A DNA stretch of 64,000 nucleotides, taken from the NCBI GenBank assembly GCA_021648145.1, contig JAKITI010000003.1:124001-188000 (forward strand). The letters are read 5' to 3'. Position numbers and translations under genes: made by a program. Below the pieces are notes generated by a model. It had not been told where the DNA came from and searched no databases. It worked only from the letters and a program-made list of their open reading frames with translations. This DNA comes from Gammaproteobacteria bacterium (GTDB taxonomy: Bacteria > Pseudomonadota > Gammaproteobacteria > JAADGQ01). Shown piece after piece: positions 7,034-19,865 of this stretch. How positions within the stretch are numbered: the first letter of the stretch is position 1; the number at the start of each line of letters is the position of its first letter.

Positions 7034-9316
7034 GTGGTAGAACAGTATGCTCGTTGGGTCATTCGTTTACGCTGGCTGATTGTTTTTTTGACTTTAGGTG
7101 TCGTTGGTTTATTGGCCAGTGGCGGCCAGTATCTGTCATTTAGTAATGACTATCGCGTCTTTTTCAGTGAAGAAAACCCGCAGCTTACTGCTTTTGAAAA
7201 TTTACAAGATACCTACACTAAAAACGATAATATCCTGTTTATGATCATGCCAAAGGGTGGTGAGGTTTTTACGCCTGACGTATTGGAAGCTGTGGTTGAA
7301 CTAACAGAAGATTCATGGCAGATACCCTACTCCATTCGGGTGGATTCAATCAGTAACTATCAGCACACTTATGCATCGGGTGATGATCTGATTGTTGCTG
7401 ATTTAGTTGAAGAACCAAGAACTCTAACGACTGAGCAGTTGCAATCTATTAAAAATATTGCGCTGAACGAGCCATTACTTGTTAACAGGATTATTTCTCA
7501 GACGGCACACGCAACGGGTGTAAATGTTGTGGTTGAGTTGCCTGGTAATGATACAAATGAAGCGTTTGAAGTTGCAGCGTTTGCGCGTGAAATTAAAGCA
7601 AACATTGAAACTGAATTTCCTCAGGTTGACGTTTATATGACGGGCATTGTTCTAATGAATAATGCATTTCCTGAAGCCAGCCAAGAAGATATGCAGACAT
7701 TAGTGCCACTTTCATATCTGGTTGTTATTGTTGGAGCGTTTCTATTTTTACGCAGTATTGCTGGTACCATTGGTACTGTACTTGTTATCGTTTTTTCAAC
7801 GCTGATGGCAATGGGCAGTGCGGGCTGGTTGGGGATTCAACTCACACCGCCGGCAATGTCTGCCCCGACGATGATTTTGACGCTGGCGGTGGCAGACAGT
7901 ATTCATTTTCTGGTGACAATGTTGCATGAAATGCGCAAAGGAAGTAGTAAAAATGATGCCATTGTCGAGAGTTTACGCATTAATTTTCAGCCAATTTTCC
8001 TGACTTCAATCACGACAGCAGTTGGCTTTCTTAGTATGAATTTTAGTGATGCGCCACCATTTCGTGACTTGGGTAATATTACAGCAATGGGTGTGATGTA
8101 TGCATTTTTTCTGAGCGTACTGTTGTTACCTGCAGTTATGGCGATATTGCCGGTTAAAGTGAAACCATCAAAAACACTTTCATCTCGTTTGATGGAGCAA
8201 TTTGCAGAATTTGTGATTCGTCGTCGTCAAAAACTGTTTTGGGGTATGGCGGGCATTATTTTGCTCTCTATCGCTTTTATTCCAAAAAACGAATTGAATG
8301 ATATCTTTGTTAACTATTTTGACGAAAGTATTGAATTTCGCACACATACCGACCTTGTGGCGGAAAATTTAACGGGTCTCTATTTTATTGATTATTCGCT
8401 TGAGAGTGGCGAAAGCGGTGGCATCAGTAATCCCGATTTTTTGAAAAAAGTGGATCAATTCGCAGACTGGTATAGGCAGCAACCTGAAACCAAGCATGTC
8501 AATGTGATTACAGATACGTTTAAACGACTGAATAAAAATATGCATGGTGATGACCCAGCCTATTATAAACTGCCTGAAGAGCGTGATCTCGCAGCACAAT
8601 ATCTGCTGCTTTATGAGATGTCGCTGCCCTACGGGCTGGATTTGAATAATCAGGTTAATGTTGATAAGTCAGCGACGCGTATCTCAATTACATTGGGTAC
8701 TCTTTCGACTAAAAATATTCTTGAACTGGAGTTAAGAGCCGAAGCGTGGTTAAAAGAAAATGCGCCCGAAATGCTGACAACTGGCGCAAGCCCGTCGGTG
8801 ATGTTTGCCCATATTGGTGAGCGCAATATTCGCAGTATGCTGACTGGAACTGTGGTTGCACTGATATTGATCTCAATGATTTTGATGGTGGCATTGCGTT
8901 CTGTAAAAATGGGTCTGATCAGTCTGGTTCCCAACCTAATTCCAGCCGCAATTGCTTTTGGTGTATGGGGATTATTTGTTGGTGAGGTCGGTCTGGCACT
9001 CTCTGTTGTGGTGACGATGACATTAGGAATTGTCGTGGATGATACGGTTCACTTTATTAGCAAATATCTGCGAGCCCAACGGGAGAATAACCTGAACTCA
9101 CAAGATGCAGTGCGCTATGCATTTGCCAATGTCGGGGTTGCCTTATGGGTGACTTCGCTGCTGTTGATCGCTGGGTTTTTAGTCCTGACGTTATCCGCAT
9201 TCGAGCTCAATTCTGGTATGGGATTGTTGACTGCGATTACGATTGGAGTGGCATTGGCGGTTGATTTTCTATTTTTACCCACATTACTCATGAAACTTGA
9301 AGGAAAAAAAGCATGA
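7034..9316 (+). CDS. RND/MMPL-superfamily exporter
   Basis: This 760-residue inner-membrane protein has the duplicated RND layout: a first transmembrane helix at residues about 10-30, a large periplasmic loop, a helix block around 220-375, another helix about 395-415, a second periplasmic loop and a last helix block about 600-755. Charged helix motifs expected of the proton relay are present in both halves (ADSIHFL near 283, VVDDTVHF near 666). It belongs to the predicted-exporter group of COG1033 rather than the multidrug pumps. The GTG start has a strong AGGGGAA site. Its stop overlaps the next start (ATGA). With the LolA-like and outer-membrane partners it probably moves a lipid or lipoprotein-like cargo to the outer membrane; that is inference. 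Confidence 0.87.
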   Translation: MVEQYARWVIRLRWLIVFLTLGVVGLLASGGQYLSFSNDYRVFFSEENPQLTAFENLQDTYTKNDNILFMIMPKGGEVFTPDVLEAVVELTEDSWQIPYSIRVDSISNYQHTYASGDDLIVADLVEEPRTLTTEQLQSIKNIALNEPLLVNRIISQTAHATGVNVVVELPGNDTNEAFEVAAFAREIKANIETEFPQVDVYMTGIVLMNNAFPEASQEDMQTLVPLSYLVVIVGAFLFLRSIAGTIGTVLVIVFSTLMAMGSAGWLGIQLTPPAMSAPTMILTLAVADSIHFLVTMLHEMRKGSSKNDAIVESLRINFQPIFLTSITTAVGFLSMNFSDAPPFRDLGNITAMGVMYAFFLSVLLLPAVMAILPVKVKPSKTLSSRLMEQFAEFVIRRRQKLFWGMAGIILLSIAFIPKNELNDIFVNYFDESIEFRTHTDLVAENLTGLYFIDYSLESGESGGISNPDFLKKVDQFADWYRQQPETKHVNVITDTFKRLNKNMHGDDPAYYKLPEERDLAAQYLLLYEMSLPYGLDLNNQVNVDKSATRISITLGTLSTKNILELELRAEAWLKENAPEMLTTGASPSVMFAHIGERNIRSMLTGTVVALILISMILMVALRSVKMGLISLVPNLIPAAIAFGVWGLFVGEVGLALSVVVTMTLGIVVDDTVHFISKYLRAQRENNLNSQDAVRYAFANVGVALWVTSLLLIAGFLVLTLSAFELNSGMGLLTAITIGVALAVDFLFLPTLLMKLEGKKA

Positions 9317-10104
9317 AGATTAATGGTATTAAAGCAATTGTTACCCTGTTATTAATAAGTCTCGCATGGGGTGCTCAAGCCGAAACAGCAGAAGAGAAAG
9401 GTCTGGAGATTGCTATCGCTATGGATGAGCGTGATACAGGTTTCCATGATCTGACGGCAGACATGGTGATGACACTGCGTAATCGTAAAGGTGATGAAAG
9501 TGTTCGTGATATTCGAATTCGCACGCTGGAAGTTGAGGGCGATGGTGATAAAAGCATCTCGATATTTGATCGTCCACGAGATATCAAGGGGACGGCAATG
9601 TTGACGTTTTCGCATGGTTTGGAGCCGGATGATCAGTGGCTTTATCTTCCTGGATTGAAGCGGGTGAAGCGGATTAGTTCAAAAAACAAATCAGGGCCGT
9701 TCATGGGAAGTGAGTTTGCTTATGAAGATCTGAGTTCACAAGAGCTGGAAAAATATACCTATAAATGGCTGCGGGATGAGCCGTGTGGTGATTGGCAATG
9801 TTATGTGATTGAGCGAATACCTGCTTACAAATACTCAGGTTACAAACGTATTATTTCGTGGATTGATAAAGCTGAATATCGCGCTATCAAAGTTGAATAT
9901 TTTGACCGTAAAAACTCAAAATTGAAGACCCTGATAATGAGTGATTATAACGAATATATTGATCGCTACTGGAGAGCGGGCGATATGTTCATGGAAAATC
10001 ACCAGACTGGAAAAAGCACCCGTCTGGAATGGAAAAACTATCAGTTTCAAACAGGCCTGACTGAAAAAGATTTTAACAAAAATGCGTTAAAACGGATTCG
10101 ATAA
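9313..10104 (+). CDS. outer membrane lipoprotein-sorting protein, LolA-like
   Basis: This 263-residue exported protein has a signal peptide (about residues 1-23, ending AQA). The DMVMTLRNRKGDE, DQWLYLPGLKRVKRIS and SEFAYEDLSSQE segments are typical of the COG2834 / LolA-like group that forms a half-barrel for hydrophobic cargo in the periplasm. Genes of this group commonly follow a COG1033 exporter, as here. It overlaps the exporter stop by four bases (ATGA) and the next gene by one base, so all three are probably made in matched amounts. Confidence 0.85.
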   Translation: MKINGIKAIVTLLLISLAWGAQAETAEEKGLEIAIAMDERDTGFHDLTADMVMTLRNRKGDESVRDIRIRTLEVEGDGDKSISIFDRPRDIKGTAMLTFSHGLEPDDQWLYLPGLKRVKRISSKNKSGPFMGSEFAYEDLSSQELEKYTYKWLRDEPCGDWQCYVIERIPAYKYSGYKRIISWIDKAEYRAIKVEYFDRKNSKLKTLIMSDYNEYIDRYWRAGDMFMENHQTGKSTRLEWKNYQFQTGLTEKDFNKNALKRIR

Positions 10105-11300
10105 TGAAGGTTTGTATTGCAGCGTTTTCATGTGCTCTGTTTTTCAGTGCTTCGAGTCAGGCGATCGAGCTCTCTGGAAATATTACTTCTGAGTTACGTT
10201 ATTTCCCAGACGCACCCGTCTCTTTTGGAGCATCTAAGTTTGATCGTGGTAGCTCATTGTCATTTTCATTCGCTCCAGAGATCTACCATGAGTGGAATGG
10301 AGGTGAGCGTGCCATTATTTTCTCTCCTTTTTTACGTTGGGACGAAAGCGATTCACAGCGCACTCATCGTGATATTCGTGAATTGAATATGTTGATCGTT
10401 CAAGGTGATTGGGAGTGGCGATTGGGTTTGGGACGCGTATTTTGGGGTGTGGCCGAATCACAACATTTAGTCGATATTATCAATCAAACGGATTCTGTTG
10501 AGAATATTGATGGTGAGGATAAGCTGGGTCAACCAATGATTCAGGCCAGCTGGAGTCAGGATTGGGGTGTACTGGATCTGTTTGTACTGCCTGGCTTTCG
10601 TGAACGTACTTTTGCGGGTGAAAGAGGGCGACTTCGATCCCCTCTTGTTGTTGATACCGAAAACCCTGTGTATGAATCAAAAGACGAAGATCGACATGTT
10701 GATTATGCGATTCGCTGGAGTCATAGCCTGGGTGTTTGGGACGTGGGCTTATCAAATTTTTATGGTACGTCGCGTACTCCGGAATTAAGGCAACGAGGCT
10801 ATAAACTCATTCCCCACTATAACTTAATTAATCAAACGGGAATTGATTTGCAGGCGACGCTGGATGAATGGATACTGAAATTAGAGTCTGTTTATCGTAT
10901 TGATCAGCGAAAGAGTGGTGATAAAAACTATGCCGCGCTTGTCGGTGGTTTTGAATATACATTTGTAGGTGCGTTTGAAACTGATGCTGATGTGGGTTGG
11001 TTAGTTGAGTATCACTATGATGATCGACAGAAAGATGCAACCAGCCCCTTTCAAAATGACCTGTTTACGGCCGTCAGGATTGCTCTGAACGATGTTCAGA
11101 GCAGTGAGCTTCTAGCGGGTGCTTTTGTTGATCTTGATCAGGGAGGATATAGTTTGCGACTCGAAGCGAATCGTCGCATAGGTGACGTTTGGAAGCTTAG
11201 TTTAGAGTATCAGGGCTTCAATAATATTGATCCTGACGATATGCTGTATGCACAGAGGCAGGAGGATTATTTGCAAGCAGAGTTAAGCTGGTTTTTTTGA
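10104..11300 (+). CDS. outer-membrane beta-barrel protein of the RND/LolA-like operon
   Basis: This 398-residue protein has a signal peptide (about residues 1-20, ending SQA). It shows alternating polar/hydrophobic strands throughout and ends in ELSWFF, a classic C-terminal aromatic signal for barrel insertion. I cannot place it in a named family with confidence; it resembles barrel proteins next to COG1033/COG2834 genes. The start overlaps the previous stop (TAATG). It probably forms the outer-membrane end of the transport route begun by the upstream genes. It is convergent with the histidine kinase, only eight bases apart, with no visible terminator. Confidence 0.75.
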   Translation: MKVCIAAFSCALFFSASSQAIELSGNITSELRYFPDAPVSFGASKFDRGSSLSFSFAPEIYHEWNGGERAIIFSPFLRWDESDSQRTHRDIRELNMLIVQGDWEWRLGLGRVFWGVAESQHLVDIINQTDSVENIDGEDKLGQPMIQASWSQDWGVLDLFVLPGFRERTFAGERGRLRSPLVVDTENPVYESKDEDRHVDYAIRWSHSLGVWDVGLSNFYGTSRTPELRQRGYKLIPHYNLINQTGIDLQATLDEWILKLESVYRIDQRKSGDKNYAALVGGFEYTFVGAFETDADVGWLVEYHYDDRQKDATSPFQNDLFTAVRIALNDVQSSELLAGAFVDLDQGGYSLRLEANRRIGDVWKLSLEYQGFNNIDPDDMLYAQRQEDYLQAELSWFF

Positions 11301-11308
11301 CCAAAGCA

Positions 11309-12547
11309 CTATTCCATATCCAGTTCGGTATCACTCGTTGGAATAATAAAGCTAAATGAAGCGCCTTCTCCTGCTGTGCTCGTTGCGTCAATGCTGCCGT
11401 TATGGTGTTGAATAATTTCTCTGCAAATCGATAAACCAAGGCCTGTACCGCCTGCACCTGTTTTGGTTTTACTGCTCTGTACAAACTTATCAAAAATACT
11501 TTCCAACTCATCTTCAGGAATACCAATTCCTTGGTCTTTTACCGTCACGCGCAGTGCTGGAAAAATACCGGTATCTTTCATCAGCATATCTTCAGTGACT
11601 GTAATTGTGATAGTTTTTCCTGCAGGTGTGAATTTAATCGCATTGGAGAATAAGTTGGTGATGACCTGGCCAACACGTGTTGCATCAAAAGAAAATTTTG
11701 TTTGGCACTCAGCGGGAATATTATTTAAAACAAGCCCACACTCTTCGATACGAACTTCTTGTTCATTGATGCAAGATTGAATCACAGTCGTCATATCATT
11801 TTCTGACATGGAAAAGTCCATCTGCCCAGCTTCCAATTTTGAAAGATCCAGCAGGTCGTTGAGTAGCTTTAAAAGCCGTTTGCCGCTGGTGTTGATGTTT
11901 TGGAAGTATTTTCCAAGCTTTTCAAGTGGTGCTGTTTCCAGTTTTTTGATGCCAAAATTTGAGTAGCTCAAAATTCCATGCATGGGCGTGCGTAACTCAT
12001 GAGACATATTGGCAAGAAATTCGGTTTTGGACAAATTAGCGGCCTCTGCTAATTCTTTGGCAAACTCAAGTTCATGAGTTCTTGCATGGACGACTTCTTC
12101 TAGATGCTCATTATGTTTTCGGATTGTTGACTCAGCTTTTTTTAATAAGAAGGTACGTCTATTCGCCCAATAAACCAGTACCTTCAACTCATTTGTTGCA
12201 TTTGTTTTAATAATTGTATTTGTAGTCGAACCATCATCAACCGCTTGATGCAGCTGAGCTATGATCGCTTTTAGTGGCGTGATTAAAATACGTTGAATAA
12301 TAAAAAACAGATAAAAAATGGCAAGTACAATTAACAGAGCCTGAATGAGTAGTAGGGATTGAATAATATGGTTTGTGTGTGCTCGGTTTTCAAGTGCGGA
12401 TTCGATGATCCAGCTTGTTGAAAAAAGTGTTGTTAAAATAATAACCAGTGCGAGAAGAATAAACAAAAATGGAAGCTGAAATTTTAAACTTTTCTTTAAG
12501 GGAGTGACGGGTGGTGTTGTTGGAATGAGTGGGGTTTGTGTAGGCAT
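11309..12547 (-). CDS. membrane sensor histidine kinase
   Basis: It has two transmembrane helices near the N terminus (about 25-45 and 65-85) with only a short stretch between them, then a linker, HisKA with the phospho-accepting His about residue 183 in SHELRTP, and an HATPase domain with NLFSNAIKF (N box), DQGIGIPE (G1) and GTGLGLS (G2). With almost no periplasmic domain it may sense through its membrane segment. I start at the ATG at 12547, which has GGAG six bases upstream; a GTG at 12559 is in frame. No response regulator is adjacent, so its partner must be encoded elsewhere. Confidence 0.9.
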
Positions 12548-12664
12548 CCTTTTCTCCACTCCAAATTTTTTGGAGCCTATTGTTTTCCAGTTTATTGTGA
12601 TTGAACGTTCCTTATCTACAATATTTCGGACTCAATAGGGGAGAGCTTTAGCGGGTATTTTGTA

Positions 12665-13843
12665 TTAATACCAAACGGAAATGTATGTTTGAAAAATATT
12701 GGCTGAAAATTTATACAGGGGTTCGTCTCCTGCGATAACTGTTTCTGTTCGTAAATCCCGAAAGTTATCGTACTGAAAACGTATATGATCCCAGGCGAAG
12801 TTAATCGTGCCTCTATCAATGAATTTCCAGCTTTTGCGTAAAAATTCATAGCTCGCACTGACACCAAAGGTATGGTTGTTGTATGTGCTTAGCTCTTTGT
12901 CTCGGGCTCGATAGCTCTGAGCTTCTTGATAGGCGAACAGGTCATTGTAAAAACTAGCTTGTTTTTGTCGGTAGTAGCGGTACCTGAAGTCATAAATCCA
13001 GTGGTTGTCTGTAGGGTAGGTGTAACCTATTTCATAGGTTTGTGCACCGATTCCCCAAGTGTCGGTGAAGTAGCGGTACTCCCCTTTGAGAGCCGCACGG
13101 TGAGCTAGGTAGTAGATTGAACGTAAAGCGATTGAGTTACTGGTGCGAGTGTTTGGGTAAAGCTCATCTTCGTAACAATAGTTACGCCCAGAGGGGCACT
13201 CTTGTGTGGCATCGGCTTGTGAATTGCTATTGCCTAGGTATCTGACCTTTCGGTAAGGGTTGTTTAAAAAGCCTTCATCTGTGATGGCTTCATAGCCCAA
13301 ATTTAATAAAAGGTTTTTTGTGACGATCTGTGACAGGCTTAACCGATAGTGGTGACGGTCCACATCTTTGGAAAACAGCGGATCGCCACGCCGACCGACT
13401 TCATCCCAGCCACGAGAATACCCCAGTGATAATGTACTTAAATCACCAAAAAGGTCTTGGCTGATCGTAAAGTGTGCTGATTGAGCATTAAAGTCATTCT
13501 CATCACTTTTAGTGTATGCAAGCCCCATGATTGTTTTGTTGTGCAGGTAGTCAATACCTACGCTATTTTCTGTGCGCTCTTCAGAGTATTCGCTTGCGCG
13601 GGTAATCACGTCAATAGATGCGCTGCTGATCGAGTCAACATAATAGTTTCCAGAAACAGAAAATTTTTGGGCAAACTCTTTTCTGACTAAAATAGAAGGG
13701 CCACTGATTGTCACGCCGCCGCCATCATAGACGTGAAAAAGTGCATCAGCGCGGTCTTCAGGGAGAATGGCTGCCTGAATGAATGATGTCATGCCTGTCA
13801 GCCAGGCAATTACGAAGAGTTGTCGTAAATTAATTACAACCAC
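12665..13843 (-). CDS. DUF3570 outer-membrane protein
   Basis: The sequence is beta-rich, and the conserved YDGGGVTISGPSILVRK and SGNYYVDSISSASID segments match what I recall of DUF3570, predicted outer-membrane barrels. I place the start at the GTG at 13843, inside the end of the DUF4266 gene: it follows AAGGTGG by five bases and gives a normal signal peptide (NLRQLFVIAWLTGMTSFIQA before AILPED). The frame stays open upstream to 13936, but that would put a Val-rich stretch, antisense-like in composition, before the signal. It ends in SVWY, an aromatic barrel end. Function unknown; the operon with TlpA suggests a redox or metal role. Confidence 0.83.
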   Translation of the reverse strand: MVVINLRQLFVIAWLTGMTSFIQAAILPEDRADALFHVYDGGGVTISGPSILVRKEFAQKFSVSGNYYVDSISSASIDVITRASEYSEERTENSVGIDYLHNKTIMGLAYTKSDENDFNAQSAHFTISQDLFGDLSTLSLGYSRGWDEVGRRGDPLFSKDVDRHHYRLSLSQIVTKNLLLNLGYEAITDEGFLNNPYRKVRYLGNSNSQADATQECPSGRNYCYEDELYPNTRTSNSIALRSIYYLAHRAALKGEYRYFTDTWGIGAQTYEIGYTYPTDNHWIYDFRYRYYRQKQASFYNDLFAYQEAQSYRARDKELSTYNNHTFGVSASYEFLRKSWKFIDRGTINFAWDHIRFQYDNFRDLRTETVIAGDEPLYKFSANIFQTYISVWY

Positions 13844-14051
13844 AACCACCACCTTGTCCACCTTCTGCACCACGAGCGCCTTCACGCGCTTGGTAAACAT
13901 GATTTCGATAGGAGCTTGATACTGGGTTACGTTCAAAGCTCATGATCGGGTCAGCTAAATGAGCACGTTCGTAAGGTTTAACCCACGGCTCAACACTGCT
14001 GCAGGCCGTGAGAAAAATAGAGATTAAAAAAAGTAGGGTGGTTAATTTCAT
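13830..14051 (-). CDS. DUF4266 small lipoprotein
   Basis: This 73-residue lipoprotein has lipobox LTAC with the lipidated Cys at residue 17. The core WVKPYERAHLADPIM is the conserved DUF4266 segment, and the C terminus ends in a Gly-rich tail GGQGGGCGCN with two Cys. Start and upstream stop overlap as ATGA (14048-14051), and its own end overlaps the DUF3570 start, so TlpA, DUF4266 and DUF3570 form one coupled unit. The function is not known to me. The CGC tail next to a thioredoxin-like protein suggests that the tail is a redox or metal-binding site. Confidence 0.88.
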   Translation of the reverse strand: MKLTTLLFLISIFLTACSSVEPWVKPYERAHLADPIMSFERNPVSSSYRNHVYQAREGARGAEGGQGGGCGCN

Positions 14052-14560
14052 TCTCGAATCAGTGCCTTCACCTGTGTTTTATACTTTTCTTCAATGCCAG
14101 GAAGATAACCTTTGTGCTCAAATCGTTGGTTGCCATTTTTGTCGATCAATATTGTGGTTGGCATACCAGAGACTTGATAAAGTTTGCTGACGGCGTTTGT
14201 TTGATCAAATAAAATCGGAAAGCTGACTGGGATTTTTTTCAGCATGGCGTGCGCCATCTGAGTATCCTCTTCGACATTGATGCCGATAATAGTGAACCCG
14301 AGGTCTTTGTAGCGTTGATAGAGCTTTTCTAAAAAAGGCATTTCCTGGCGGCATGGAATGCACCATGAAGCCCAGAAATTAATCATGACGACTTCGCCAC
14401 GAAAGTCTTCGAGATTGACTGGATTTCCTTGGCTGTCAGGCAGGGTGAAATTGGGTGCTGGGCCGGATACTTCCTTTGCAAAAACTGTTCCACCATAAAA
14501 TAGAAATATTGCACTTAAAAGGATAAGCAATTGTGAAAAAAATTGAAAGCGGTTTCTCAT
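14048..14560 (-). CDS. TlpA-like exported thioredoxin-family protein
   Basis: This 170-residue protein has an N-terminal signal (about residues 1-28, ending VFA) and an AhpC/TSA-Redoxin fold: APNFTLPDSQG, then the active site WASWCIPC with Cys at 67 and 70, the cis-Pro segment GMPTT, and a C-terminal helix. Such proteins reduce disulfides or deliver electrons in the periplasm, for instance in cytochrome c or metalloprotein maturation. Its neighbour carries a Cys-Gly-Cys tail, a plausible substrate. It is the first gene of the TlpA-DUF4266-DUF3570 operon. The ATG follows a weak AGAAAAG site. Confidence 0.92.
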   Translation of the reverse strand: MRNRFQFFSQLLILLSAIFLFYGGTVFAKEVSGPAPNFTLPDSQGNPVNLEDFRGEVVMINFWASWCIPCRQEMPFLEKLYQRYKDLGFTIIGINVEEDTQMAHAMLKKIPVSFPILFDQTNAVSKLYQVSGMPTTILIDKNGNQRFEHKGYLPGIEEKYKTQVKALIRE

Positions 14561-14737: not shown

Positions 14738-15250
14738 TTAATCACTTTTAATTATTTTAAGAATACTACTGACTGTTGTGTTGCCCAATATACCACCCCA
14801 CCACCTGATGTTTTTTCCTTCCGGATATGCCACCAATACTTGGTTGCATGGTAAACCAATGGCAACTTCTACTTTTTCACCATTTCTAATAAAACGAACA
14901 CCTTGAAAGAATTGGTTTTGGCAACGTTGCCGTATATTGGTATAGTTTTTATCATTTAAAATAAATTTTGCCAATTCTTCTGATTCTTGTCTATTGAATT
15001 TTTCTGGTGTGGTTTGAACTGGGTATCCTGCAATGCGTTTATCAGTTGTAAAAACATACTCTCTCGACTCGGCTACACTTACAACGTGCAAACATGCGCT
15101 TTCTGCTGATGTATGATTTGCTATAATACCTGACGAAGCTCCTAAAGTTTCGAGTAAAGTGAATTGCTCAGCATGACTAACAGGTGTTAAGAATATACAA
15201 AAACATAAAAATACAGGTTGACTGTTTGATATTCTAAGCAAGATTTTCAA
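14738..15250 (-). CDS. hypothetical exported protein paired with the HExxH protein
   Basis: This 170-residue protein has a signal peptide (about residues 1-27, ending SHA). The mature part contains three Cys, two Trp in the RWWGG motif and a VEVAIGLPCNQVLVAYPEGK segment; I do not recognise a family. It starts at a TTG codon (15250-15248), supported by GGAG six bases upstream and by the signal peptide beginning right there; the start lies 17 bases inside the end of the preceding HExxH gene, so the two are coupled. An exported small protein following a putative protease without signal would fit an immunity or inhibitor role, but this is a guess. Confidence 0.68.
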   Translation of the reverse strand: MKILLRISNSQPVFLCFCIFLTPVSHAEQFTLLETLGASSGIIANHTSAESACLHVVSVAESREYVFTTDKRIAGYPVQTTPEKFNRQESEELAKFILNDKNYTNIRQRCQNQFFQGVRFIRNGEKVEVAIGLPCNQVLVAYPEGKNIRWWGGILGNTTVSSILKIIKSD

Positions 15251-15767
15251 GGTAATCTCCTAGCTGCTTTATCGATCCCAATATTGCAGGGTTATATTGG
15301 GGTTTAAAGCCACACTTATCAGCTGCTTTTTCAGCAGCATGAGATGCTCCCCCAGGAGCACCACCAATATGAGCAAGCTCGTGAATAATAGTAGCAGCAA
15401 CCATCCAGCGATTAGTGTTGCCTAAACACCATGCAGAAATACAAATATCTTTATCGTTACTATGTGTGGCTCCGTAAAATCCAATAATTACAGAAGGAGA
15501 GTAATTGATAAAAATAGTATTATCTCTCCAAAAATGGTGAAATGCCTTTCTTTTAGAAAGAGTTCTAAAGTATTTATTACAGGGGCCTTGTAGATCAATT
15601 TTAGCATCAAATTTATTTATAATGTTATACGCTTCATTTAATTTTTTTAAATGTGCTTTTTCAGTATCTGTCCCGTTACAAAATACATTATATTGAATGG
15701 TTGTCCCCCCTGCATAATGTTCAGTTTTACTGCCATGTCCTGAGTCAATTGTATTAATTTTGGACAT
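15234..15767 (-). CDS. putative zinc metallopeptidase (HExxH), AT-rich gene
   Basis: This 177-residue protein has a zincin signature HELAH at residues 129-133 (two His ligands and catalytic Glu), followed by GGAPGGASHAAEKAAD, in which Glu146 or Asp150 could be the third ligand. Five Cys (30, 63, 109, 114, 152) suggest disulfides, yet there is no signal peptide. The region before the motif resembles lysine-specific metallo-endopeptidase or toxin-type metalloprotease domains, without a clear match. I use the ATG at 15767, nine bases after GAGG; an ATG at 15776 is in frame but touches the ribosome site. Base composition is visibly more AT-rich than in the neighbouring operons, and an attC-like site follows the pair, so transfer is likely. 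Confidence 0.68.
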   Translation of the reverse strand: MSKINTIDSGHGSKTEHYAGGTTIQYNVFCNGTDTEKAHLKKLNEAYNIINKFDAKIDLQGPCNKYFRTLSKRKAFHHFWRDNTIFINYSPSVIIGFYGATHSNDKDICISAWCLGNTNRWMVAATIIHELAHIGGAPGGASHAAEKAADKCGFKPQYNPAILGSIKQLGDYLENLA

Positions 15768-15857
15768 CTTTGCCATCCTCGTTTGGTTAGTTAATTCAAT
15801 ATCTATTTTTCACAGGTTATTTTTACAAAATGACCTTTCTTTAGCCTGTCAGGTCAA

Positions 15858-16484
15858 TTAAAAATAAACTGTGATACTTCCTGAAGTTTCGAGATTGTGT
15901 GTTGTTTTATTTTCACCGAGTAAGTCTGTGTCAAAGATGTAATCACGCATATCAAGGTGCAGGGCGATTGAGTCTGTCAGAAGGAACCGGTAACCCGCGC
16001 CCAAATTAATCGTGCGATAGTCGTCGCCTGCAAAACGGGTATTACCCATGCCGGCAATAAGATAGAGTGCCGTATTATAAGCACGACTTCGACCTATGAA
16101 CGCTTCACCAGGAAGCAGGTTGTAACCGAATGAAATATTATAGTAGTCAAGCTCTCGCTCACTGTCTGTGAGCAGTTGAGCCGCACCACTGAGGCGCTCG
16201 TAACTGGTTTTTGTGGTGGCACTTCTGGCATAAGCTGCTTCAATAAATATGGCAGGTGAAATGTGATATGCAAACCGTAACCCCAGCACTGAATTGACTC
16301 CAAAATCCTCTACACTGAGTAGGCCACTATACAAACCAATTTCAAAATCTTCAGTATCAATTGCAGCAATTTCGATCTCTCTGCGTTCGACTTCGGGGTT
16401 AACGACCTGAGGCGTTGCAAAGGCTGTCGTATGGCCAAACAGGGCAAAAAATGTTAGAAAAAGAATGCGAAACCGGCTTTCCAT
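15858..16484 (-). CDS. outer-membrane beta-barrel protein (OmpA-like fold)
   Basis: This 208-residue protein has a signal peptide (about residues 1-23, ending AFA). It has about eight predicted strands with alternating hydrophobic residues (FEIGLYSGLLSVEDF, GLRFAYHIS, YYNISFGYNLLPGE, INLGAGYRFLL) and ends in SGSITVYF, a barrel-type C-terminal Phe. It resembles the small outer-membrane barrel domain also present in the gene before it. Its start overlaps that gene by 31 bases; the three genes from 19865 leftward read as one operon. The function is probably structural support for the upstream heme lipoprotein, or sensing at the surface. Confidence 0.78.
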   Translation of the reverse strand: MESRFRILFLTFFALFGHTTAFATPQVVNPEVERREIEIAAIDTEDFEIGLYSGLLSVEDFGVNSVLGLRFAYHISPAIFIEAAYARSATTKTSYERLSGAAQLLTDSERELDYYNISFGYNLLPGEAFIGRSRAYNTALYLIAGMGNTRFAGDDYRTINLGAGYRFLLTDSIALHLDMRDYIFDTDLLGENKTTHNLETSGSITVYF

Positions 16485-17209
16485 TCGTCGATATCCTCGT
16501 TGTCTGTATCGCTGGAAAAAATAACGTAATTTTTGTACTCCGCACGAAAAATAAAGCGGCGGGTGATATAGGTTCGTATACCTATACCATAATGCGCAAG
16601 AATGCTATTGCGATTTTCTGATTGTATTAGTGTTGTGCGTGGATTGGTTTGAATGCCGCCTGCACCCAATGTGAAAAAAGGTGAGACTCGCCAGTCAGGG
16701 AAGGGCTGGTTGAGTATATTGGCGTTCAGCATCATACTGCTGGAAAATGTACCGAGTATTTGTGAGAGTCCGATCTCGCTCGATATATTGGGTGTGAATG
16801 CATAATTCCCATAAATATTCATGACTGATGCACCATCAAAGCGACCCCCCAGCAAGCCAGCTTCCCAGCGACGTGTCAGAGAATTTCGCCGAGTCATCCA
16901 CTGAAACTCCTCTCCATTATTCTTGGCGGTTCTGCTTTCCATGCTGGATTGTGGAGCCCAACCGACTTTCCCTTTATGAGTGCGTACTTTGAACCAGTCC
17001 GTTCTTCGCTTGATAATCTCAATATAATCATGTTGTTTAGCTATATGAAAAACAGGGTAGCCCCAGCCAGGTCCTGTATGCATTTCCAGATAAGGTTCGG
17101 TCACCTGTATTTTTGGGTGTGATGATTCACTGCTGTGTGTTGTATTTATAAAAAAACAGAGTAACAGTATGAATAGTTTCAGTCTGTTTTGAGCGAACAG
17201 TTTTGACAA
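16454..17209 (-). CDS. SH3-domain plus outer-membrane barrel protein
   Basis: The protein has a signal peptide, then a bacterial SH3 domain (PYLEMHTGPGWGYPVFHIAK to VGWAPQSS, ligand-loop Gly/Pro and Trp present), then an eight-strand barrel domain ending GFAFFF. The barrel part resembles that of the next gene. No ATG precedes the signal peptide. The TTG at 17209 gives a normal signal length (SKLFAQNRLKLFILLLCFFI), while the TTG at 17287 would add 26 residues and overlap the upstream gene; neither has a strong ribosome site. The SH3 domain may bind peptidoglycan or the heme lipoprotein encoded upstream. Confidence 0.75.
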   Translation of the reverse strand: MSKLFAQNRLKLFILLLCFFINTTHSSESSHPKIQVTEPYLEMHTGPGWGYPVFHIAKQHDYIEIIKRRTDWFKVRTHKGKVGWAPQSSMESRTAKNNGEEFQWMTRRNSLTRRWEAGLLGGRFDGASVMNIYGNYAFTPNISSEIGLSQILGTFSSSMMLNANILNQPFPDWRVSPFFTLGAGGIQTNPRTTLIQSENRNSILAHYGIGIRTYITRRFIFRAEYKNYVIFSSDTDNEDIDEWKAGFAFFF

Positions 17210-17264
17210 TGTGATTGTTTTCTTTGTTATTTGCTGTGATGAATTGGCTCTTACAGTATAGCAG

Positions 17265-19865
17265 CTAATCTTCGGATGATAAGTCAAAAGAGTTGTTGTA
17301 ATATTGCCCGCCGATATCGAGCCATTCGGAGATCAAGCGTCGCTCTGTGGGGGTAAGTAAATTTGAGTGATTAATACTGGGTGTATCAAAACGTTCGAAA
17401 AAAGAGCGTGCACCGTTAGCGGACATCACGGGGCTGGGTGCGCTAACAGTTGTCATGATTGGAATTGGATTACCGTCAGCATCCCGAATCAAGTCACCAT
17501 TTTCGTCTGTCTCAAAAAGAGTTTGATTGTTTTCATCCGTTTCTTGCACTATTAAATCTTGTAATACACCATCAATAACGACCTGTATATCATCGTTAAA
17601 AAACAGTTCTCGGTAAGTGGTAATGTGGGCCGCATTTTGGTCTGAAGGCTCAGAGGTAAACAGATCAAGGTCTGCCGCAGCGACAAGTGGGTTTCCGTTA
17701 TCGTCGGCAGGTGCGTGGCATAGGCTGCATGTGCTATCCGTTGTGCCTATGGTGCGTGGGGCACTCCATATTGGGTGAATATGCTGAACATAATTAATAA
17801 TTGTGCGGCATAAGTTATTCCAGCTCTTTAGGCATTGAGGTGTTGTCGGTGCGGGGGTTGATAAATCATCATAAAGGTAGCTGAAAGAGGGGTCAATGGC
17901 TCTAACGTTGGGGTCTGTCCAGCGATCTTCAAAAATAATATCCATGCTGGGATTGAGTGAATTGCAGTCTGTTTCACAGCTGATTCGAGCACGGGTTTGC
18001 GCCATGGTTTCGCCTGTGATTGCGACTAAGTCCACCTGAGTATTTGGAAACGGGATGTTATCTGTTGTTGCTCCACTATTAAGTGCAGTTATTGCTTCAG
18101 GGCGACCGTGAGGCTCAGCGCTTTCTGCATCATGGCAGCCATGGCACTCTAGTGTTTCACCGGGACGAACTTGCATCCAGTTGGGATGGCGGTCGCCAAT
18201 GCGTTGTCCATTTTCATCTAATATGCTTATGGTAAATGCGATATTTGCGGGTACTTTTATCATCACTGAACCATCCGGCTCGATCATATTGTAGCCTACG
18301 ATCTCTCTCATTTTTTGTCGATTGCTAATGCCGAAGGTTGATCCAGCCACTCCGTCAGGTGTCGGTGCGGCTTTGATAATGCGTAAAAAACGAGCAGGGC
18401 GGGCGTTTGCCTGGGTTTGAAGTGGGTCAGCTAATTCGGTGATGTTTTCTGCACTGCCACCCAGATTGTTGTAAGTGCCATCAAAGTCATAAACACTGCG
18501 GATATGCAGTACACCGATACCTTCTTCAATAAAGTTGGTATTGAGGTTCTTGCTGTCAGAGATAACTGTGGGTATTTCTCTGGGTTGCAGGGTGATGGCA
18601 TCGCTGATAATTTTTCCTTCTACGGGAGGGATGACAGGTAACATGGTGTCTTCATTTTTGTCAAAAATATAGATGCCGTAGAGTGGAAATGCGGCGCTAG
18701 CGTCTTCGTTATTGATGCTCTCTTCAGTGCAGGGAATGAGGCGATCATTTTCTTCCAATAAGCGACATTGTGACCAACTGATTAATATCCGTTCTGTTCC
18801 GTCCCAGAGTGGAAAGGCAGAGTGAAATTGACCGCCGATTGAAATAGAACCATCAATTAAAATCTGTTGTGAAGTGGCGGCTGTTTGTGTGGTACTGGAA
18901 GTCGCCATCGGTAAGGGTTGGTTGTAATCTGAAAAATTAGTAATGTCGATAAGAGTGAGATCACCGACCGGTTCATCGAATGGTTTGATTATTGTGAGTA
19001 ACTTTCCATCAGGCATGGGTTTGGGTCTTAGAAACTGAATGGTTGTTTCGTTGGTGCCTGTTTCGTGGCTGTTGGCACCATAAAGGAGTTGCAGGTTTGT
19101 GCCGTCTGGATTGATTTTGTAAAGATTGATTTCATTTTTGTTGCCCATATTATCCCAGCGACTAAAAATAATTTCTCCGCTATTAAGTACTGCCGGGTTT
19201 AAATCGTGACTTTGATTGAACGAAATTTGACGAATATTGCTGCCATCTGTATTGATGATATGCAGCAGAGAGGCTGGCTCATTACCGTCTTCATCCAGCC
19301 CAGAAAATTTTGGTTTGCCTTCATCAAGCAACATGGCTCCCGTTTGGCGCTGACGAGTTGAAGTAAATACAATGCGGCCATCGGGTAGGTAGTGTGGAGC
19401 CGTATCGTGGCCAAGTTCGGCGGTATTATCAGAATTGATGAGACGGCGTAGTTGATCACTTTGGATGTCGTACTCCCAGAGATTCCATGTATCGCTGTCT
19501 TGGTCTGAAAGGCGCATGGAAAACATTAATTTATTACCATCAAAAGAGACTGAAATATCTTTTACATCACCCTTTCCGTCAGTGATGCGTGAGGTGATAT
19601 TTTTCTCAGTAGCACTGGGTGAGGCGCGATGACGCAGGTAAAGATCACTGCCTTCACGGAAACTCAGGATTTCACGTTCATCATCGGCAATAAACAGACC
19701 CTCTTCATCAATGGGTATGGCTCGTTTAGTATAAGCAATGCCAAAGTCTTTGACGACGGGGTCGGGAGTCTGTTTGTCATCACCAATACAGCCTGTGAGT
19801 GCAGGTAGTGTAAACAGGAGGCTGATTAATATGATGTATGGTGTGTGTTTGCAATTGAAAAACAT
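17265..19865 (-). CDS. HzsA-like diheme lipoprotein with TolB-type propeller
   Basis: This 866-residue lipoprotein has lipobox LTGC with the lipidated Cys about residue 26. The N-terminal half has PD40/TolB-like propeller blades (LPDGRIVFTSTRQ, NSGEIIFSRWDN, DGSNIRQISF). The middle part resembles the HzsA-related middle domain, and two c-type heme motifs follow: CHGCH about residues 572-576 and CSLCH about 713-717. It must be matured by the cytochrome c system and anchored to a membrane facing the periplasm or surface. HzsA is the alpha subunit of hydrazine synthase, but HzsA-related proteins occur far outside anammox bacteria, so hydrazine synthesis must not be assumed. It is first in an operon with two barrel proteins. 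Confidence 0.82.
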   Translation of the reverse strand: MFFNCKHTPYIILISLLFTLPALTGCIGDDKQTPDPVVKDFGIAYTKRAIPIDEEGLFIADDEREILSFREGSDLYLRHRASPSATEKNITSRITDGKGDVKDISVSFDGNKLMFSMRLSDQDSDTWNLWEYDIQSDQLRRLINSDNTAELGHDTAPHYLPDGRIVFTSTRQRQTGAMLLDEGKPKFSGLDEDGNEPASLLHIINTDGSNIRQISFNQSHDLNPAVLNSGEIIFSRWDNMGNKNEINLYKINPDGTNLQLLYGANSHETGTNETTIQFLRPKPMPDGKLLTIIKPFDEPVGDLTLIDITNFSDYNQPLPMATSSTTQTAATSQQILIDGSISIGGQFHSAFPLWDGTERILISWSQCRLLEENDRLIPCTEESINNEDASAAFPLYGIYIFDKNEDTMLPVIPPVEGKIISDAITLQPREIPTVISDSKNLNTNFIEEGIGVLHIRSVYDFDGTYNNLGGSAENITELADPLQTQANARPARFLRIIKAAPTPDGVAGSTFGISNRQKMREIVGYNMIEPDGSVMIKVPANIAFTISILDENGQRIGDRHPNWMQVRPGETLECHGCHDAESAEPHGRPEAITALNSGATTDNIPFPNTQVDLVAITGETMAQTRARISCETDCNSLNPSMDIIFEDRWTDPNVRAIDPSFSYLYDDLSTPAPTTPQCLKSWNNLCRTIINYVQHIHPIWSAPRTIGTTDSTCSLCHAPADDNGNPLVAAADLDLFTSEPSDQNAAHITTYRELFFNDDIQVVIDGVLQDLIVQETDENNQTLFETDENGDLIRDADGNPIPIMTTVSAPSPVMSANGARSFFERFDTPSINHSNLLTPTERRLISEWLDIGGQYYNNSFDLSSED

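What the first reader, a model, noticed from the sequence alone, without database searches (positions are those of the whole stretch)
12665..14560. Coupled TlpA-DUF4266-DUF3570 operon with a Cys-Gly-Cys tail lipoprotein
All three reading frames overlap. The small lipoprotein ends GGQGGGCGCN and sits next to a CIPC thioredoxin-like protein and a barrel. From memory such genes often sit near ApbE-type flavin transferases, absent here. The CGC tail looks like a substrate for the TlpA protein or a metal/cofactor site, making this a candidate uncharacterised envelope redox system.
Basis: partly seen in the sequence, partly recalled or inferred. Interest (0 to 1): 0.55.

Follow-up and report, generated by a model that had tools for sequence, protein, structure and literature searches.

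The report
Flavin-linked outer-membrane redox operon, new branch
Three neighbouring genes for a thioredoxin, a small cysteine-tailed lipoprotein and an outer-membrane barrel form the core of a little-studied bacterial electron-transfer system, and here they belong to a distinct branch that comes with its own flavin-attaching enzyme and with cytochromes related to hydrazine synthase.

Summary
The trio is real: ResA/TlpA-like protein (CIPC), DUF4266 lipoprotein ending GGGCGCN, DUF3570 barrel, overlapping on the minus strand. The core is already published: Meheust 2021 describes ApbE + DUF3570 + thioredoxin + DUF4266 clusters, the conserved CXC tail, and flavinylation of DUF3570. The CGC tail occurs in 113 of 113 loci examined.

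The window copy is not that published type. It belongs to a separate clade ("type B", my name) fixed in a six-gene order: diheme hydrazine-synthase-alpha-like lipoprotein, two small barrels, TlpA, DUF4266, DUF3570. The type-B flavinylation site is D-x-x-[S/T]-S-A-S (S at the usual Gly in 79 of 88). The same genome also holds a canonical type-A cluster.

"ApbE absent" holds only locally. Type B has its own ApbE clade: in 13 of 13 type-B genomes and 0 of 67 others (p = 3e-15), linked or unlinked; in this genome it lies on another contig. Most likely reading: TlpA keeps the CGC dithiol reduced; this feeds electrons to FMN attached to the barrel by this dedicated, motif-relaxed ApbE, and on to HzsA-like hemes. 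Flavinylation at SSAS and electron direction are inferred.

The parts
14048..14560 (-). TlpA/ResA-like thioredoxin-fold protein, 170 aa, signal peptide, active site W-C-I-P-C (CIPC codons 14351-14362)
   Evidence: Redoxin 106.3 bits, AhpC-TSA 105 bits; ResA model NF002854 131.8 bits, under its cut-off of 170; best PDB match 3gl3_A E 2.3e-31
13830..14051 (-). DUF4266 lipoprotein, 73 aa, lipobox Cys17, C-terminal tail GGQGGGCGCN (CGCN codons 13833-13844)
   Evidence: PF14086 84.6 bits; tail counts
12665..13852 (-). DUF3570 outer-membrane beta-barrel; flavinylation-type site DSISSAS at 13616-13636; start one of GTG 13852/13849/13843
   Evidence: PF12094 118.7 bits; AlphaFold2 model pLDDT 89.1, pTM 0.87, 16 long strands; Foldseek generic OM barrels; site alignment
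15858..16484 (-). TIGR04565 outer-membrane barrel (OMPmyx)
   Evidence: TIGR04565 160 bits, cut-off 60; linked in 73 of 73 type-B loci with room
16454..17287 (-). SH3-domain plus small barrel protein
   Evidence: SH3_3 30.8 bits; linked in 69 of 69
17265..19865 (-). HzsA-like diheme lipoprotein (TolB-type propeller, CHGCH and CSLCH, lipobox LTGC)
   Evidence: HZS_alpha 59.7 bits; CxxCH motifs; profile hit 5c2v_A E 1.1e-17; fold match 5c2v_D Z 34.0, rmsd 3.2, 594 aligned; linked in 62 of 62
14738..15776 (-). Two extra genes (170 aa and 180 aa) between OMPmyx and TlpA; not part of the conserved unit
   Evidence: no Pfam match; absent from the same place in the same-genus genome G447 (L183)

Best explanation
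The window trio is the outer-membrane core of a flavinylation-based extracytosolic electron-transfer system, in a distinct branch (type B). TlpA, probably fed by the genome's DsbD, keeps the CGC dithiol of the DUF4266 lipoprotein reduced. DUF4266 passes electrons to FMN that a dedicated type-B ApbE attaches to the last Ser of D-S-I-S-S-A-S on the DUF3570 barrel. Electrons exchange with the HzsA-like diheme lipoprotein and the other outer-membrane components. Shown here: gene content and order, tail conservation, the split of DUF3570 into two clades, the changed site, a dedicated ApbE clade that tracks type B, the HzsA fold and two heme motifs. Inferred: FMN attachment at SSAS, thiol chemistry of the tail, direction of electron flow, outer partner and substrate.
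For: Published core: ApbE flavinylates DUF3570; DUF4266 has a conserved CXC tail and clusters with thioredoxin-like proteins. CGC in 113 of 113 loci. Six-gene unit: HZS 62/62, SH3 barrel 69/69, OMPmyx 73/73, TlpA 74/75, DUF3570 72/72 where contigs reach. Site in type B: D 88/88, A 88/88, acceptor S 88/88, next D 88/88; the usual Gly is S 79, G 4, N 4, A 1. DUF3570 types A and B are two sides of one branch, SH-aLRT 100; the Gly-bearing B rows lie inside B, so Gly probably came back there. A type-B-linked ApbE used as query matches 13 of 80 genomes at 301 bits or more, exactly the 13 with a type-B cluster; the other 67 reach at most 169 bits (Fisher p 3e-15). All linked B ApbEs, the own C7 copy and 28 further copies from type-B genomes form one clade, 100/100. 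In 21 loci with ApbE linked to type B, 0 of 316 predicted proteins has a canonical D..[ST]GA[ST], while 18 of 18 DUF3570 have D..[ST]xA[ST]. A Gly-to-Ala change in the motif still gave about 50% flavinylation in another ApbE target (review passage). Own DsbD at C5.
Against: No canonical [S/T]GA[S/T] motif at the aligned site of the window DUF3570; loss of the flavin with a leftover structural motif is possible. Three of 49 named type-B genomes (G435, G439, G446) show no clade-iv ApbE and two more (G405, G443) only truncated candidates. Strand counting on the model puts the site at the outer mouth of the barrel, far from a periplasmic dithiol, so direct transfer from CGC to FMN needs another relay. 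No complex was modelled. Pairing of ApbE with type B does not say which protein it modifies.
Confidence: 0.6

Rival explanations
1. Type B has lost the covalent flavin. The Gly-to-Ser change inactivated the site, hemes of the HzsA-like protein took over electron carriage (a flavin/cytochrome swap), and the type-B ApbE modifies something else.
For: S, N or A at the Gly position in 84 of 88 type-B sites against G in 22 of 23 type-A sites; ApbE not close in most type-B loci (found in 4 of 25 with about 10 kb on both sides); diheme HzsA-like protein in every testable type-B locus.
Against: Dedicated ApbE clade tracks type B, 13 of 13 versus 0 of 67; no protein of 21 ApbE-linked type-B loci has a canonical motif; acceptor Ser, Ala and Asp are invariant and Gly seems to have reverted twice within B.
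Confidence: 0.25
2. TlpA and DUF4266 are a maturation pair, not an electron conduit: the CGC lipoprotein, reduced by TlpA, keeps heme-binding cysteines of the locus cytochromes reduced for assembly.
For: TlpA scores nearest to ResA/TlpA/DsbE-type proteins, some of which serve cytochrome c maturation (role recalled); type-B loci encode several c-type heme motifs.
Against: The same TlpA-DUF4266-DUF3570 trio with the same tail occurs in type A, whose loci carry ApbE and no HzsA-like gene.
Confidence: 0.15
3. The CGC(N) tail binds a metal (for example copper or iron) and the trio works in metal reduction or uptake.
For: [quoted passage not shown] two cysteines one residue apart can bind soft metals (general knowledge).
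Against: No recognised metal transporter was seen in the conserved type-B unit; a thioredoxin lies next to the tail gene in 74 of 75.
Confidence: 0.15

Closest known systems
ApbE / DUF3570 / thioredoxin-like / DUF4266 clusters ('DsbD systems', Meheust et al. 2021, PMC8238504; passages read)
   Same: DUF3570 barrel, DUF4266 with C-terminal CXC, thioredoxin-like protein, ApbE in the genome
   Different: ApbE not in the cluster here; site is DSISSAS, not [S/T]GA[S/T]; six-gene unit with HzsA-like diheme lipoprotein and two barrels; separate DUF3570 and ApbE clades
Type-A cluster of the same genome (G000 C1, L036 11132..8276)
   Same: TlpA - DUF4266 (GGGGCGCN) - DUF3570 in the same order
   Different: ApbE adjacent; site DTVTGAT; no HzsA-like gene next to it
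Hydrazine synthase alpha subunit HzsA (PDB 5c2v)
   Same: Whole-length fold (Z 34.0, 594 aligned) and two CxxCH motifs in the window protein
   Different: 21% identity in the structural alignment; 62.4 bits against an equivalog cut-off of 800; lipoprotein in an envelope operon, mostly of Gammaproteobacteria
Agl/Glt gliding-machinery core (Luciano et al. 2011, PMC3169522; passages read)
   Same: In a subset of type-B loci TPR proteins F9, F10, F11 and, in two loci examined, a MotA/ExbB plus two ExbD genes follow
   Different: Not beside the window cluster; the paper's text has 0 occurrences of thioredoxin, cytochrome or barrel

Membership tests
ApbE-DUF3570-DUF4266 system (Meheust 2021) | DUF3570 (PF12094) | tested here: met
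   118.7 bits, cut-off 25
ApbE-DUF3570-DUF4266 system (Meheust 2021) | DUF4266 (PF14086) with C-terminal CXC | tested here: met
   84.6 bits; CGCN tail
ApbE-DUF3570-DUF4266 system (Meheust 2021) | thioredoxin-like protein in cluster (PF13899 in the paper) | tested here: inconclusive
   A thioredoxin-fold protein is adjacent, but it hits Redoxin/AhpC-TSA and others, not PF13899
ApbE-DUF3570-DUF4266 system (Meheust 2021) | ApbE in the gene cluster | tested here: not met
   None in the window; three in the genome on C1, C7, C8; the C7 copy belongs to the type-B clade
ApbE-DUF3570-DUF4266 system (Meheust 2021) | two [S/T]GA[S/T] motifs in DUF3570 | tested here: not met
   Aligned site reads DSISSAS
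ApbE-DUF3570-DUF4266 system (Meheust 2021) | DUF3570 flavinylated by cognate ApbE | not testable with these tools
   needs co-expression
Hydrazine synthase alpha subunit (for 17265-19865) | HzsA fold over the whole length | tested here: met
   Z 34.0, rmsd 3.2, 594 aligned to 5c2v_D
Hydrazine synthase alpha subunit (for 17265-19865) | equivalog score NF052339 | tested here: not met
   62.4 bits, cut-off 800
ResA/TlpA thiol-disulfide oxidoreductases | thioredoxin fold with CxxC | tested here: met
   CIPC; Redoxin 106.3 bits; 3gl3_A E 2.3e-31
ResA/TlpA thiol-disulfide oxidoreductases | curated ResA cut-off (NF002854) | tested here: not met
   131.8 of 170 bits

The most novel reading that the evidence does not exclude
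A widespread branch of envelope redox systems, centred on Gammaproteobacteria, uses a dedicated ApbE with relaxed specificity (D-x-x-[S/T]-[S/N/G]-A-S) to flavinylate its own DUF3570 barrel. It couples a thioredoxin-fed C-terminal CGC dithiol, an outer-membrane flavin and a hydrazine-synthase-like diheme lipoprotein into one route across the outer membrane, sometimes with an Agl/Glt-type ExbBD motor.
Probability: 0.4. Interest if true: 0.75.

Novelty: new variant of a known kind. Interest (0 to 1): 0.58.

Why it matters
It turns a vague 'DUF' operon into a testable enzyme-substrate pair: one ApbE clade, one barrel, one altered motif, with complete co-occurrence in the 80-genome test. If right, the ApbE recognition motif used to predict flavoproteins is too narrow, many flavinylated barrels are being missed, and a HzsA-like cytochrome gains a genomic and functional context outside anammox.

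Tried and rejected
Rejected: 'type B is ApbE-less, so flavin was lost'. I held this; some searches showed ApbE about 10-11 kb upstream in many type-B loci, and a dedicated clade, so it became a rival. Rejected: the own C1 ApbE as the natural partner of the window barrel; it falls with type A. Rejected as evidence: some ApbE present in all 49 type-B genomes searched, since ApbE is common in general. F10 as ApbE substrate: relaxed motif in 4 of 5, but the matches printed lie at different places. U1 (about 530 aa, Tat-type start) got no Pfam family (at E up to 10 only a sub-threshold TAT_signal match in one of three). No solved relative of DUF3570 by sequence. Papers: DUF4266 and DUF3570 each occur in one paper of the library, the same one; TIGR04565 in none; 'hydrazine synthase alpha subunit' with thioredoxin and outer membrane in none; four papers hold HzsA-like terms, seen as search listing only; a 2024 mSystems paper on flavinylation (PMC11334425) has 0 occurrences of DUF3570 or DUF4266 (section 5 read). 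So 'new' means: not found by these searches. A complex of tail, TlpA and barrel could not be predicted with the tools.

Assignments made by hand: the loci L107, L120, L127 and L133 (short contigs) were put in type B by DUF4266 likeness, L036 in type A although an SH3 hit lay near; L087 and L125 lack the site (truncated) and are not in the 88. Five of 113 rows were left out of the tree by length. L070 was a false DUF4266 hit (under cut-off) and dropped. Most of L151-L161 were fetched because an ApbE was near, so they do not measure linkage. The 80 genomes were chosen by me from 398 + 37 sampled ones: all 13 with a type-B cluster that I knew of, the rest mostly same-class genomes without one; the Fisher test ignores relatedness among genomes.

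Full report
Observation. TlpA and DUF4266 share four bases. DUF3570 can only start plausibly at GTG codons within the DUF4266 tail, so the second overlap is probable. Pfam confirms all three families above their cut-offs.

What is already known. Meheust et al. 2021 (eLife, PMC8238504; passages read) report DsbD gene clusters with ApbE, DUF3570, a thioredoxin-like protein and DUF4266 (221 clusters with DUF4266), and 316 clusters with the same genes without DsbD. They note the highly conserved C-terminal CXC of DUF4266 and show that a Chlorobium DUF3570 is flavinylated at two [S/T]GA[S/T] sites.

Tail and linkage. PF14086 hits 30 of 398 phylum genomes, 29 above cut-off. 33 loci were examined (all places above cut-off, both own copies included): DUF3570 adjacent in 33, TlpA in 31. 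With 80 named relatives added, the last residues are GGGCGCN in 106 of 113, with GVGCGCN 3, HGGCGCN 2, AGGCGCN 1 and GGGCGCY 1; CGC is in all 113.

Two types. The own genome holds two clusters: the window one, and a canonical one on contig C1 with ApbE adjacent and site DTVTGAT. Across 113 loci, 23 are type A: ApbE found in 22 (in the exception, L054, the contig ends), Gly at the site in 22 of 23. Ninety are type B. In type B with the site readable (88), D, A, acceptor S and the following D are invariant, while the Gly position is S 79, G 4, N 4, A 1. In a tree of 108 DUF3570 rows each type is one side of one branch (SH-aLRT 100, length 2.37); the four Gly-bearing B rows (L043-L045, L129) sit inside B, so Gly probably returned (quick method, no bootstrap).

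The wider locus. Type B lies in a fixed unit. Among L071-L150, where the contig reaches: HzsA-like 62/62, SH3 barrel 69/69, TIGR04565 barrel 73/73, TlpA 74/75, DUF3570 72/72. F6 (PSD2-like, one heme motif) is divergent upstream in 55/59. Beyond it come U2 (LamG; two heme motifs in 13 of 14, the other masked) and U1. F8-F10 occur downstream in a subset (13/67, 12/61, 12/53), elsewhere next to ApbE; in two loci examined they are followed by MotA/ExbB and two ExbD genes, the kind of gene set that Luciano et al. 2011 describe as the agl/glt core of unknown function in Gammaproteobacteria (passages). In the window genome the F6-U2-U1 arm sits about 40 kb away on the same contig without ApbE (C3:91539-96825), and the HzsA-like gene abuts thrS.

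HzsA-like protein. Two CxxCH in the window protein and most relatives; lipobox-like motif in 58 of 63 long members. The AlphaFold2 model (pLDDT 89.1) matches Kuenenia hydrazine synthase alpha: Foldseek E 3.2e-28, Z 34.0 over 594 residues, next best Z 27.3 (TolB). It is not a hydrazine synthase by the curated score.

DUF3570 model. Sixteen long strands, pLDDT 89.1; nearest folds are general outer-membrane barrels. Counting strands with both ends in the periplasm, the site ends strand 3 and points to the outer mouth; the longest loops follow odd strands, which fits. This is inference, not a measured topology.

ApbE. All 49 type-B genomes searched have some ApbE, which alone says nothing. Sorting 105 ApbE sequences by tree shows one clade (47 rows, 100/100) with all 18 linked type-B ApbEs tested, 28 further copies from type-B genomes (mostly unlinked) and the own C7 copy; the other own copies, C1 and C8, fall elsewhere. 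By tree or by identity, 44 of 49 named type-B genomes have a member, 2 have truncated candidates and 3 have none. The profile test used 80 genomes of known DUF4266 status: 13 matches at 301-391 bits, in the 13 type-B genomes; the best in the other 67 is 169 bits, Fisher p 3.2e-15 (ignoring relatedness). In 21 loci with linked ApbE, none of 316 predicted proteins has the canonical motif and DUF3570 has the relaxed one in 18 of 18. A review reports that Gly-to-Ala in another target lowers flavinylation to about 50% (passage).

Mechanism. Most likely: DsbD (C5) to TlpA to the CGC dithiol to FMN on DUF3570, exchanging with the HzsA-like hemes. From recall, not a call: short CGC peptides are known as dithiol mimics of protein disulfide isomerase. 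Unknown: direction, outer partner, substrate. The distance from a periplasmic dithiol to an outer-mouth flavin is a real difficulty.

Verdict. The finding is sound, its kind is known, its branch was not found in print by the searches made here, and it offers a sharp test of ApbE specificity.

Noticed in passing
window 14738-15776 (-): Two extra genes, 180 aa with a HELAH zinc-protease-like motif and a 170 aa protein, sit between OMPmyx and TlpA; the same-genus genome G447 (L183) lacks them at this place.
   Followed up: partly
window 11309-12559 (-): Histidine kinase of 416 aa next to DUF3570; the counterpart in G447 (L183 15523-17760) is 745 aa with a similar start, so the window copy may lack a C-terminal part.
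   Followed up: no
window 7034-11300 (+): A 760 aa transporter-like protein, a LolA_like protein (217.6 bits) and a 398 aa protein without Pfam match form an overlapping three-gene run.
   Followed up: no
L124 and L135: A MAG titled Polarisedimenticolaceae (Acidobacteriota, L135) and a Sedimenticola MAG (L124) carry nearly identical type-B barrels (end branches 0.08 and 0.07), suggesting misbinning or recent transfer.
   Followed up: no
L143, L148: DUF4266 precedes TlpA: the two genes have swapped order in these two loci.
   Followed up: no
L093 5239-6260: Type-B-linked ApbE split over two frames (112 and 219 bits).
   Followed up: no
L182 10539-12119 (G000 C3:91539-93119): U1, about 530 aa with a twin-arginine start, conserved beside the cytochromes of type B, matches no Pfam family above cut-off.
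   Followed up: partly
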